NCBI RefSeq assembly: GCF_023238445.1
Contig: NZ_CP096658.1
Coordinates: 992,001-1,056,000 of the forward strand
Length of the DNA stretch: 64,000 bases
Source of the DNA: Halorussus gelatinilyticus
GTDB lineage: Archaea; Halobacteriota; Halobacteria; Halobacteriales; Haladaptataceae
Reading direction: 5' to 3'
In this document: positions 43,897 to 63,616 of the stretch, one piece after another
Numbering within the stretch: the stretch's first letter is position 1
Layout: each line of letters opens with the position of its first letter
The notes under the pieces: model-generated
The model's input: only the letters and a program-made list of their open reading frames with translations
Databases searched by the model: none
What the model was told of the DNA's origin: nothing
Position numbers and translations under genes: made by a program

Positions 43897-44223
43897 ATGT
43901 CACCCGATAACGACAGCACGAGCAAGCGTCGAATGCTAAAGAGCATCGGTGCGACCGGTCTCGCGCTGGGCGCGAGCGGCGTCGTGGCCGCGAGCGGGGC
44001 CGACGCCGACCCGACCGAAGTTCCGGCGGACCGGTCCGAGGCCCCGACCCAGAGCGACGGAGTCTCTCCCGAGGGCGGTTGGGAGTACAAGTGCGAGGAC
44101 TTCGCCTGCTGCTCGGGAAGCGACTGTCAGGAGTACCGACGCTACTGCGCCGACGGCAGTTGTAGCGGATGGGAGAAGTCCGGTTGCTGTGCGGGAGACT
44201 GCGGTTCGTTCTCCTGTGCGTAA
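43897..44223 (+). CDS. Tat-exported cysteine-rich small protein
   Basis: A 108-aa precursor. Seen: a Tat signal (SKRRMLKSIGATGLALGASG), a polar propeptide-like stretch (about residues 38-60), and a C-terminal domain of about 48 residues with ten Cys at 66, 71, 72, 77, 84, 89, 97, 98, 102 and 107. An even Cys number in an exported domain suggests up to five disulfides. I know no family; it might be a halocin-like peptide, a metal- or redox-active protein, or a surface structural protein. The promoter is strong and carries a palindrome at the start codon. Confidence 0.75.
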   Translation: MSPDNDSTSKRRMLKSIGATGLALGASGVVAASGADADPTEVPADRSEAPTQSDGVSPEGGWEYKCEDFACCSGSDCQEYRRYCADGSCSGWEKSGCCAGDCGSFSCA

Positions 44224-61910: not shown

Positions 61911-62357
61911 TCAGTCGGCCCCGTCGGCGTCGTAGCGCCCGCGAAGCCTATCGTCATCCCCCTCGACCGGCGAAATCTCGAAGCCGAGCGCGTCGTAGAA
62001 CGGGCGGACGCCGGGGTCGAACTCGGCGGTCAGACGGGCGCGGTGCGCGGCCGCGGCGCGGACCAGTGCGGTCCCGACGCCCCGGCCCCGGCGGGCGCGC
62101 CTGACCGCCACGGCGTCGATGTGCGCGGCCTCGTCGCCGGACGCGTCCGGCGCGTCGTCGCTCAGAGGCACGAGAACCAGCGCACCGAGAACCGGCGTCT
62201 CGCGCTCGCCGGAGTCCTCGTCGCCCTCGCTCGCCACCAACACGTCCCCGGCGGCGACGCGCTCGCGGAGGTCGTCGCGGACGTCCAGCATCGCGGCGTC
62301 GAGGACGCGCCGGACGCCCAGTCGATCGTCGGCGGTGGCACGGGTGATTCGGACCAT
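61911..62357 (-). CDS. GNAT-family N-acetyltransferase
   Basis: A 148-aa acetyltransferase. Seen: VRITRATADDRLGVRRVLDAAML at the N-terminus, and the acetyl-CoA binding motif as AAHIDAVAVRRARRGRGVGTALV with the R/Q-x-x-G-x-G/A pattern, followed by AEFDPGVRPFYDALGFEI. Targets (amines or proteins) unknown. Minus strand, 13 bp downstream of the halocin-linked membrane protein. Confidence 0.88.
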   Translation of the reverse strand: MVRITRATADDRLGVRRVLDAAMLDVRDDLRERVAAGDVLVASEGDEDSGERETPVLGALVLVPLSDDAPDASGDEAAHIDAVAVRRARRGRGVGTALVRAAAAHRARLTAEFDPGVRPFYDALGFEISPVEGDDDRLRGRYDADGAD

Positions 62358-62370
62358 GTATGCAGTTGAT

Positions 62371-62559
62371 CTACGAAGCGGCCTTTCGTCGGAGTCTCGT
62401 GAACGTGTACGCTACTATCGCAGTCGTCAGGGTCGTGAACGCGACCGACGTCATGTTCTGGAGGCCAACGAGTTCGGAGTCGAACCAACTGAAAATGGCG
62501 ACGACTAGGGTGATGCCGAAGATGAGTCCGGCCTCGGTCGAATTGACGTTCCACTCCAT
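62371..62559 (-). CDS. 62-aa membrane protein downstream of the halocin-like gene
   Basis: Seen: NSTEAGLIFGITLVVAIFSWF, then a helix (MTSVAFTTLTTAIVAYTFTRL) and a basic end (RRKAAS): two membrane spans. The ATG at 62559 lies 14 bp after the stop of the halocin C8-like reading frame, so they share an operon. Position suggests an accessory or immunity-related protein, as small membrane proteins accompany halC8-type loci, but sequence gives no proof. Confidence 0.65.
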   Translation of the reverse strand: MEWNVNSTEAGLIFGITLVVAIFSWFDSELVGLQNMTSVAFTTLTTAIVAYTFTRLRRKAAS

Positions 62560-62573
62560 CTTCGATAGTACCG

Positions 62574-63584
62574 TTAGTGTCCTGAATAACGTTTACATGT
62601 TGGATAGCACACGGCGGCCGTGACAGCACCGCAGAAGACACCACAGCCTACGGTCAACGACGAAGCGACGACTGACGCCGCGCACAGCGAGCCGCACGAC
62701 GTTCCTGTGGCCGCGGAGAGTGTACCGCAGAATACCTTGCAGGCGTCGACGCAGTAGAATCCGCCACATTGGATGTGGTTCTGGATTCCGACCCTGTCCG
62801 ACGACCCGTACGAGAGTATGCCCCGAGACTGACTCTCAGAGACCGTGAATGAAAGCCCCTCATCGCTATTGACAGTACCCTCTACGTTGACGTACAAGCG
62901 GTTCGCCGTCCTCTCGTGTTATTGGAACCCGAAGCCATGCTCGACTTGCGTCTTTCTCCGGCATTTGAACGAGCATGGGATTCGGAGCCTGCTTGTCGGA
63001 CTTGGCCAGAACGCGCTTCAGTGCCCGAACAACTTCCACTCGGTCAGCCGGACCGTCGCCGATCGACTCTGCCCCTCCGTTTGACAGCACTTCGACAATC
63101 ATCTTCCGTCCTGTCTGCTCTACCTTTGGGGTGTGGCCAACGTCTACTACGCTCCCGTGTTCTCCGTCGATCTTCCGCACTCCGTCACCAACCTTCTTCT
63201 CTCCTATCGCCTTGGCAGCTGTACCCTCGAAGTCGGCCGATTCGTAGTACTTGACGGTAAACTCTTTTTCCTCGTTCTCTAGTACGACGACCTTGCCCTG
63301 ACTAGTCCCATCGTCGTCGCTGATAGTGTACTTGCCAGCGGTCCTCACTGACGGTGCGCTCCCGAACTGGTCCACGACGAACTGGACCTGCTCTGATTCC
63401 CGCGCGGCCTTAACTAGGGCTTTCCGCTCTGAACTACTCATTTCCTCTATATCGACACCTATCTCGCCCGACGCAGTCAGTTCGTTTGCACTAGTTACGC
63501 CCGGCGCAATTGCGGTCGCACCGGCGGCAATACCCATCTTCTGAAGTACGCCTCGTCGGTTTATTTCATGGTTTTCTCAACCAT
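62574..63584 (-). pseudogene. halocin C8-like precursor, disrupted by two frameshifts
   Basis: One gene appears to be read in three frames. From ATG 63584 (set by a TATA box 28 nt upstream) the frame stops after eight codons (MVEKTMK). The frame one base off carries ENHEINRRGVLQKMGIAAGA, a Tat signal, and continues through an N-terminal pro-region/immunity-like domain to 62866. A second shift near 62893 leads to the C-terminal frame (TANRLYVNVEGTVNSDEG and on to 62574). That ends in a domain with ten Cys (QCGGFYCVDACKVFC, CGSLC, GCGVFC, VCYPTC), the number found in halocin C8, a proprotein-derived archaeal peptide antibiotic. The frameshifts could be real decay or sequencing error. GC is lower than in the flanks, which suggests transfer. 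Confidence 0.72.
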
Positions 63585-63609
63585 GTAAAGAAACATACAA
63601 CCTCTTTGA

Positions 63610-63616
63610 TTATAGT
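63610..63616 (-). promoter_or_regulatory. TATA box of the halocin-like gene
   Basis: Minus-strand ACTATAA, 26-32 nt upstream of the ATG at 63584, leaderless spacing. This is what fixes 63584 as the original start. Confidence 0.6.

What the first reader, a model, noticed from the sequence alone, without database searches (positions are those of the whole stretch)
62574..63584. Halocin C8-like precursor split by two frameshifts in a lower-GC island
A promoter-defined ATG (63584), a Tat signal in another frame (NRRGVLQKMG) and a 10-Cys C-terminal peptide in a third frame all line up on one strand. The first shift lies just after the start and fits one lost base in GA(G)GAAAACC. The second is near 62893. 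Halocin C8 is made as a Tat-exported proprotein whose C-terminal peptide has ten Cys. Possible explanations: an inactive relic, programmed frameshifting or phase variation, or sequencing error. The peptide's Cys spacing differs from HalC8, so it may be a new member.
Basis: partly seen in the sequence, partly recalled or inferred. Interest (0 to 1): 0.82.

Follow-up and report, generated by a model that had tools for sequence, protein, structure and literature searches.

The report
Broken haloarchaeal peptide-toxin gene beside partner
A salt-loving archaeon carries a recently acquired but broken gene for a secreted, ten-cysteine, halocin-like peptide, next to a small intact membrane protein that may be its immunity protein.

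Summary
The pieces are real: on the minus strand, 63584-62574, lie a promoter and start codon, a Tat-signal/body frame and a ten-Cys frame. There are two frames, not three; start codon and Cys peptide share one. A sister copy in Halorussus aquaticus (body and core 97-98% identical) reads straight through the second junction, so body and peptide were one precursor. It has a different lesion, a stop at the second Tat arginine. Four intact relatives (333-356 aa) have RR signal, body and an 8-10-Cys core. None matches halocin C8 models TIGR04449 or PF22862: a separate, halocin-like family. Assembly error is unlikely (1 of 136 ORFs frame-changed).

With a downstream 62-aa membrane-protein ORF it forms a low-GC cassette in 2 of 18 Halorussus genomes, between genes adjacent in the other 16; its two tiles are the most alike of 394 compared. 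The partner ORF is intact in all four decayed loci seen, including one lacking the core. Best reading: a recently decayed Tat-exported peptide toxin whose likely immunity gene is retained. Activity of peptide and partner is not shown.

The parts
63609..63615 (-). TATA-like promoter element (CTATAAT), 24 nt before the start codon, as expected for a leaderless haloarchaeal transcript
   Evidence: Sequence, by eye; CTATAA kept in H. aquaticus with spacing within 1 nt. Leaderless reading is inference.
63561..63584 (-). Start codon and short frame MVEKTMK*, out of frame with the body (first lesion)
   Evidence: frame phase
63553..63558 (-). Twin-arginine pair of the Tat signal (EINRRGVLQKMGIAAG), in the body frame
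   Evidence: the segment aligns with that of the intact relatives, which have RR (where the window-type row starts at MGIAAG); weak TAT_signal_seq match below cut-off
62866..63576 (-). Precursor body frame (signal h-region and about 210-aa body); ends at a stop after the second junction (about 62897)
   Evidence: 97.5% identical DNA to H. aquaticus; relatives
62574..62897 (-). C-terminal frame; continuous with the body in H. aquaticus (second lesion at its upstream edge)
62577..62768 (-). Ten-Cys core CGGFYC...CYPTCKRYSGH (spacing 4,3,3,10,3,12,3,7,3)
   Evidence: identical protein in H. aquaticus
62371..62559 (-). 62-aa intact membrane-protein ORF, candidate immunity partner, 14 nt downstream of the precursor stop
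   Evidence: top of 4,377 small ORFs with a profile of partners from four other loci, E 0.002; intact also in H. aquaticus, L003, L108, L111, L118
63680..64000 (-). Flanking redoxin (AhpC/TSA) gene, 3' part: one edge of the insertion site
   Evidence: adjacent to GNAT in 16 of 18 Halorussus genomes
61911..62357 (-). Flanking GNAT acetyltransferase gene: other edge of the insertion site

Best explanation
This is a recently decayed copy of a halocin-like peptide-toxin gene from a family distinct from halocin C8. The intact gene makes a precursor of roughly 335-355 aa that is exported by the Tat pathway. A C-terminal 60-70-residue peptide with usually ten Cys is then presumably freed as the active antimicrobial. 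A 58-68-aa small membrane protein encoded just downstream probably protects the producer. Gene and partner form a 1.2-kb low-GC cassette that entered the redoxin-GNAT site and was shared between Halorussus lineages. In this genome the precursor cannot be made in one piece, because start codon, body and core are not in one frame, while the partner remains intact. The cell is therefore most likely an immune non-producer. Shown: anatomy, frames, homology, insertion site, recent sharing, past purifying selection, and partner ORF intact in four decayed copies. Inferred: export, toxin activity, processing, and immunity by the partner.
For: - Single-frame body plus core in H. aquaticus. Four intact relatives L111, L108, L002, L004 of 333-356 aa with RR signal and Cys core.
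- A different lesion in the sister copy: in-frame TGA at the second Arg of RR.
- dN/dS of body 0.144 (p 2e-4) and of body plus core 0.204 (p 4e-4), so the frames were under selection until recently.
- Empty site in 16 of 18 Halorussus genomes. Cassette tiles at 98.5 and 96.3% identity are the two highest of 394 aligned (of 999 cut; median 84.3).
- Background indel rate: 1 frame change in 136 testable ORFs (48,837 aa); two in 1 kb at that rate has P about 2e-5.
- Partner: a 50-75-aa ORF with two hydrophobic segments within 100 bp downstream in 3 of 7 family loci, against 5 of 521 control genes (P 3e-5). The window partner ranks first of 4,377 small ORFs with a profile made without it.
- Partner ORF intact in all four decayed loci (window, L010, L003, L118). 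In L118 no core is seen and the partner follows the body remnant by 21 bp.
Against: - No functional data for any member, and no Pfam or NCBIfam family covers it.
- In the strict hydropathy test the window and H. aquaticus partners show only one segment; window partner homology is weak (20-21% identity to the other loci; E 0.002).
- Two of the eight loci lack the downstream partner: L002 has a different small hydrophobic ORF upstream on the other strand, and L004 has ABC-transporter-like genes (by eye).
- Partner-like proteins also occur in 12 further genomes of 382. In 11 of these 12 loci inspected (L151 too short) no plausible Cys core was found in 1.5 kb upstream on the same strand; L150 has one 7-Cys stretch taken as chance. 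The partner may have a wider role, or these are chance matches of membrane segments.
- The partner shows no synonymous and two nonsynonymous differences between sister copies, so selection on it is not demonstrated.
- The four decayed loci include two sister copies, so they are not four independent cases.
Confidence: 0.72

Rival explanations
1. Assembly or sequencing error: the gene is intact in the living strain.
For: Window genome completeness is 96.66%, against 98-100% for 16 of the 17 other Halorussus genomes; both lesions are small frame changes, and the body shows strong past purifying selection.
Against: Only 1 of 136 testable ORFs shows a frame change in 400 kb of this genome (4 of 133 the other way). 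The H. aquaticus copy carries an unrelated nonsense lesion, so decay of this cassette is not peculiar to one assembly.
Confidence: 0.12
2. The body alone is still made from an internal start (Met 63537) as a non-Tat protein with an immunity-like role, as HalI protects against halocin C8, and the peptide has been discarded.
For: Body Met and frame are conserved in both sister copies although both lost the link from start codon to Tat signal in different ways. In HalC8 the precursor also yields the immunity peptide HalI (passages of PMC11509114). Body dN/dS is low.
Against: No match of the body to PF22862 and no clear similarity to HalC8-like bodies (hhalign 10.8%, p 0.003); no ribosome-binding site seen by eye; the promoter sits at the upstream start codon.
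Confidence: 0.1
3. Programmed frameshifting or phase variation expresses the precursor occasionally.
For: The two shifts cancel, so start and core are in one frame.
Against: Four relatives encode one frame; H. aquaticus has no shift at the second junction and a stop, not a shift, near the first; no repeat tract at the first site in H. aquaticus.
Confidence: 0.03
4. The secreted Cys-rich protein is not an antimicrobial but another secreted factor (for example a signalling or surface peptide), and the membrane protein is an accessory rather than an immunity protein.
For: No activity known; no family match.
Against: Architecture like HalC8; leader shared with two HalC8-like precursors at E 1e-12 and 6e-9; patchy, horizontally shared, decaying cassette with partner retained.
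Confidence: 0.2

Closest known systems
Halocin C8 / HalC8-like precursors (NCBIfam TIGR04449, Pfam PF22862)
   Same: Tat-type N-terminus, body, C-terminal core with usually ten Cys; two TIGR04449 precursors (L031, L022) share the DxxGCxE...RR leader of the intact relatives (E 1e-12 and 6e-9; alignment); a VSTQ-like stretch just before the core in several of both groups (by eye)
   Different: No match to either model; Cys spacing 4,3,3,10,3,12,3,7,3 against 2,7,3,7,13,7,8,8,5 in HalC8 (L016); body not clearly related; core similarity only marginal (hhalign probability 27-33%, p 5e-4 to 7e-4; reversed control p 0.04); small membrane partner downstream
Halocin H4 and HFX_0892/HmHapP (PMC12893001: abstract and found passages read)
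   Same: Secreted haloarchaeal precursors activated by proteolysis, for HmHapP by another strain's protease
   Different: No sequence comparison made; HmHapP acts through an N-terminal helical fragment; the word 'cysteine' does not occur in the paper's main text
Bacterial bacteriocins with small membrane immunity proteins (recalled, not tested)
   Same: Toxin precursor followed by a small membrane protein
   Different: Tat export and archaeal host here; no homology tested

Membership tests
Halocin C8-like family | C-terminal domain matches TIGR04449 (halocin_C8_dom) | tested here: not met
   No TIGR04449 match for the window frames and five relatives at E up to 1, or for the H. aquaticus protein at E up to 10; control HalC8 1e-16 and 2e-15; the family search finds 43 of 391 genomes, not this one
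Halocin C8-like family | N-terminal domain PF22862 (Hac8_like_N), in the HalI part | tested here: not met
   No match for window pieces, H. aquaticus protein or five relatives; HalC8 (L016) 1.7e-48. Caveat: of the TIGR04449 members tested, L031 is below the Pfam cut-off and L022 has no match
Halocin C8-like family | Tat (twin-arginine) signal | tested here: met
   RR in the body frame, as in four intact relatives; sub-threshold TAT_signal_seq match.
Halocin C8-like family | C-terminal core of about 60-76 aa with ten Cys | tested here: met
   Ten Cys in the window, L010, L002, L003, L108 and L111; eight in L004. Number met, spacing different
Halocin C8-like family | Antimicrobial activity, cleavage of precursor, immunity from the body | not testable with these tools
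   -
Family described here (Cys core ending CYPTC or similar, with small membrane partner) | Same body and core as intact members | tested here: met
   Body: found among ORFs by the family profile, 1e-71, and 97.5% identical to H. aquaticus. Core: 1.9e-40 to profile A3, which contains the window row; 42 and 40% identity to L002 and L003 in a plain search
Family described here (Cys core ending CYPTC or similar, with small membrane partner) | One continuous open frame | tested here: not met
   Window copy broken in two places; H. aquaticus copy has an in-frame stop
Family described here (Cys core ending CYPTC or similar, with small membrane partner) | Homologous small membrane protein directly downstream | tested here: met
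   Window 62559-62371; such an ORF in 6 of 8 family loci; homology weak for the window member (E 0.002)

The most novel reading that the evidence does not exclude
A previously unnamed class of archaeal secreted peptide toxins (Tat precursor with a Cys core distinct from halocin C8) is paired with a dedicated small membrane immunity protein. The cassettes move between haloarchaea and repeatedly lose the toxin while keeping the immunity gene, so many haloarchaea are immune non-producers. This would differ from halocin C8, where one gene gives both toxin and immunity.
Probability: 0.4. Interest if true: 0.66.

Novelty: new variant of a known kind. Interest (0 to 1): 0.5.

Why it matters
HalC8 is described as the best-characterised halocin at the molecular level (PMC11509114, passage); few others have known genes. 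A distinct family with a linked small membrane protein, plus natural toxin-lost/partner-kept loci, gives a direct genetic test of archaeal bacteriocin immunity. It also suggests that searches with the HalC8 models miss related systems. For this window the practical result is that the gene is broken, so no peptide should be expected from this strain.

Tried and rejected
- No match to the H. aquaticus protein in 72,556 plasmid or 50,697 phage records at E 0.01. No relative of the core in viral contigs (25 candidate stretches, none confirmed).
- AlphaFold on the 107-aa C-terminal frame alone gave pLDDT 45.9. The model is not usable and no fold search was run.
- PDB sequence search with that frame: one hit at E 0.27, taken as chance.
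- The first indel-rate script (3 of 69 and 7 of 71) included what I took for spurious antisense ORFs and was replaced by the codon-position-filtered one.
- Family profile against 27 TIGR04449 precursors and 1,598 ORFs of two Halorussus genomes used as decoys (two of these proved to be the family's own copies). The whole profile also gives L020 5e-4 and L027 1e-3, with the best decoy at 0.0096. With the leader/Tat part removed the best is L036 0.034 (decoy 0.073). Body alone: decoys score better (0.01 against 0.61). Core alone: L041 0.024, no decoy listed. Homology of body and core to HalC8-like precursors is left open.
- hhalign of full precursors (97%, p 7e-11) covers the Tat signal and the first part of the body. 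Without the Tat part and core it falls to 10.8%, p 0.003, reversed control 0.31, so it is not counted as body homology.
- Dropped before counting family members: five weak hits (G041, G087, G136, G289, G358; E 0.0018-0.009) and two (G302, G438).
- Leader search hit 300 of 391 genomes at E 0.001. Many of the listed weak hits contain stops and are taken as chance. Thirty loci were read, and my motif found a leader ORF in 17 of them.
- Repeats: no repeat pair lies at the two cassette edges.
- Papers: six searches. Judged by titles and abstract starts, none listed describes this family. Only PMC12893001 (abstract and passages) and PMC11509114 (passages) were read. The halI paper PMC2566001 is not held. 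Sun et al. 2005 was seen only as a reference entry.

Full report
What is there. On the minus strand a TATAAT (63614-63609) stands 24 nt before an ATG at 63584, which reads MVEKTMK and stops. A second frame carries EINRRGVLQKMGIAAGATAIAPG and a body to 62866. A further ORF, 62897-62574, ends in CGGFYCVDACKVFCGTLSAATGTSCGSLCAASVVASSLTVGCGVFCGAVTAAVCYPTCKRYSGH. A 62-aa ORF follows (62559-62371). The area is low in GC (0.563 against 0.656 over 400 kb).

The pieces are one gene. A named relative, Halorussus aquaticus XZYJ18 (NZ_CP100400.1, L010), reads body and Cys peptide as one frame of 320 aa from the Met of MGIAAG. DNA identity is 97.5% for the body, 98.1% for the C-terminal frame, 98.9% for the 62-aa ORF, but 87% for the short stretch from start codon to that Met. 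Its own start codon is in frame with the body, but a TGA stands at the second Arg of the RR pair. Thus two sister copies are each cut off from their Tat signal by different lesions, and the window copy is also broken before the peptide.

Selection and error. Between the copies the body has 11 synonymous and 5 nonsynonymous differences (dN/dS 0.144, Fisher p 2e-4). Body plus core frame has 13 and 8 (0.204, p 4e-4). The Cys part has no amino-acid change. The C-terminal frame alone is uninformative (2 and 3, p 0.6). The frames were therefore read until recently. In 400 kb of this genome, 1 of 136 ORFs testable against H. aquaticus shows a frame change (4 of 133 the other way). Two in 1 kb by the same process has a probability near 2e-5, so assembly error is unlikely but not excluded.

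Family. Searches of 391 and 392 genomes gave intact relatives L002 (355 aa), L004 (356), L108 (333) and L111 (335; a second, intact copy in H. aquaticus), plus a C-terminal half in L003. The leader search added L118. That makes eight loci: four intact, four decayed. The intact ones have an RR signal, a body and a C-terminal core with ten Cys (eight in L004) ending in CYPTC, CYATC or CLPTC.

Is it halocin C8? HalC8 itself was recovered (L016, reading the same as the recalled peptide) and matches TIGR04449 (1.9e-15) and PF22862 (1.7e-48). The window pieces, the H. aquaticus protein and five relatives match neither. Against 27 TIGR04449 precursors and 1,598 decoy ORFs, a profile of the family finds L031 (1e-12) and L022 (6e-9), and weakly L020 and L027, but this rests on the N-terminal leader/Tat part. 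Without it nothing stands clearly above decoys (best 0.034 against 0.073). The leader, DxxGCxE followed by RR, is shared by both groups and by precursors with other Cys cores (L117, L120). The window copy itself has only a short n-region without it. Core against core is suggestive at most (hhalign 27-33%, p 5e-4 to 7e-4, reversed control 0.04). So it is built like HalC8 but is not shown to be a member.

Partner. Within 100 bp downstream, a 50-75-aa ORF with two hydrophobic segments occurs in 3 of 7 family loci, against 5 of 521 control genes and 3 of 23 TIGR04449 loci (L118 not yet included). The window and H. aquaticus ORFs pass only one segment in that test. With a profile from four other partners they rank first and second of 4,377 small ORFs (E 0.002 and 0.007). 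L002 and L004 have no such downstream ORF. In the four decayed loci (window, L010, L003, L118) the partner ORF is intact. In L118, leader and body start are in different frames, the rest of the body and the core are not found, and the partner begins 21 bp after the remnant. This is what retention of an immunity gene after toxin loss would look like. It is an inference from four loci, two of them sister copies. A class-wide partner search hit 15 of 382 genomes. Besides the three family loci, 11 of 12 were inspected and no plausible Cys core was seen upstream (L150 has a 7-Cys stretch taken as chance; L151 too short). These are either orphan immunity genes or unrelated small membrane proteins.

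Mobility. All 18 Halorussus genomes searched have the redoxin and GNAT genes together. In 16 they are directly adjacent (roughly 15-70 bp between match ends), and in the window genome and H. aquaticus the cassette lies between them. Flanking genes are 78% and 76% identical between the two. Of 394 800-bp tiles that aligned (of 999), the two most similar (98.5, 96.3%; median 84.3) are those of the cassette. Recent sharing by transfer or recombination at this site is the simplest reading. No repeat pair marks the two edges, and no match was found in plasmid, phage or viral collections.

Mechanism. Most likely an intact copy exports a precursor by Tat, a protease frees the Cys-rich peptide (as stated for ProC8, HalI and HalC8 in passages of PMC11509114), and the small membrane protein protects the cell. 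In this genome the precursor is lost and the partner kept. Activity, export, cleavage and immunity are untested.

Verdict. The halocin C8 label does not hold. It is a new variant of a known kind, of moderate interest, raised by the linked partner and the toxin-lost loci.

Noticed in passing
window 43897-44223 (+): A separate, intact 108-aa ORF with a Tat-like signal (KRRMLKSIGATGLALGASG) and a C-terminal stretch with ten Cys (CEDFACCSGSDCQEYRRYCADGSCSGWEKSGCCAGDCGSFSCA); no Pfam match and only weak Tat-type NCBIfam matches; weak matches in 4 of 14 other Halorussus genomes, all within the first 60 residues.
   Followed up: partly
L031, L022, L117, L120, L002, L004, L108, L111: One leader (DxxGCxE ... 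RR) precedes several different Cys-rich cores, and a DGGGCxETW start also occurs on proteins without a Tat-type signal (L130, L131, L135-L137): a possibly modular leader.
   Followed up: partly
L119: Another precursor with this leader whose body and Cys-rich stretch lie in different frames, followed by a small hydrophobic ORF: a further apparently decayed peptide locus (by eye).
   Followed up: no
L004 and L020 (same contig of G324, about 4 kb apart): A member of this family and a HalC8-like TIGR04449 precursor sit close together, with ABC-transporter-like genes (by eye) next to the former.
   Followed up: no
window 63584-63553 and L010 3314-3346: Both sister copies carry a lesion within the first dozen codons, between start and Tat signal, though by different changes; this could be chance or selection against export first.
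   Followed up: no
L147, L148, L152, L156: Pairs of small membrane ORFs (...VAVFAWYRTGLTGIQRWTNA...) resembling the partner, without a Cys core seen upstream.
   Followed up: partly
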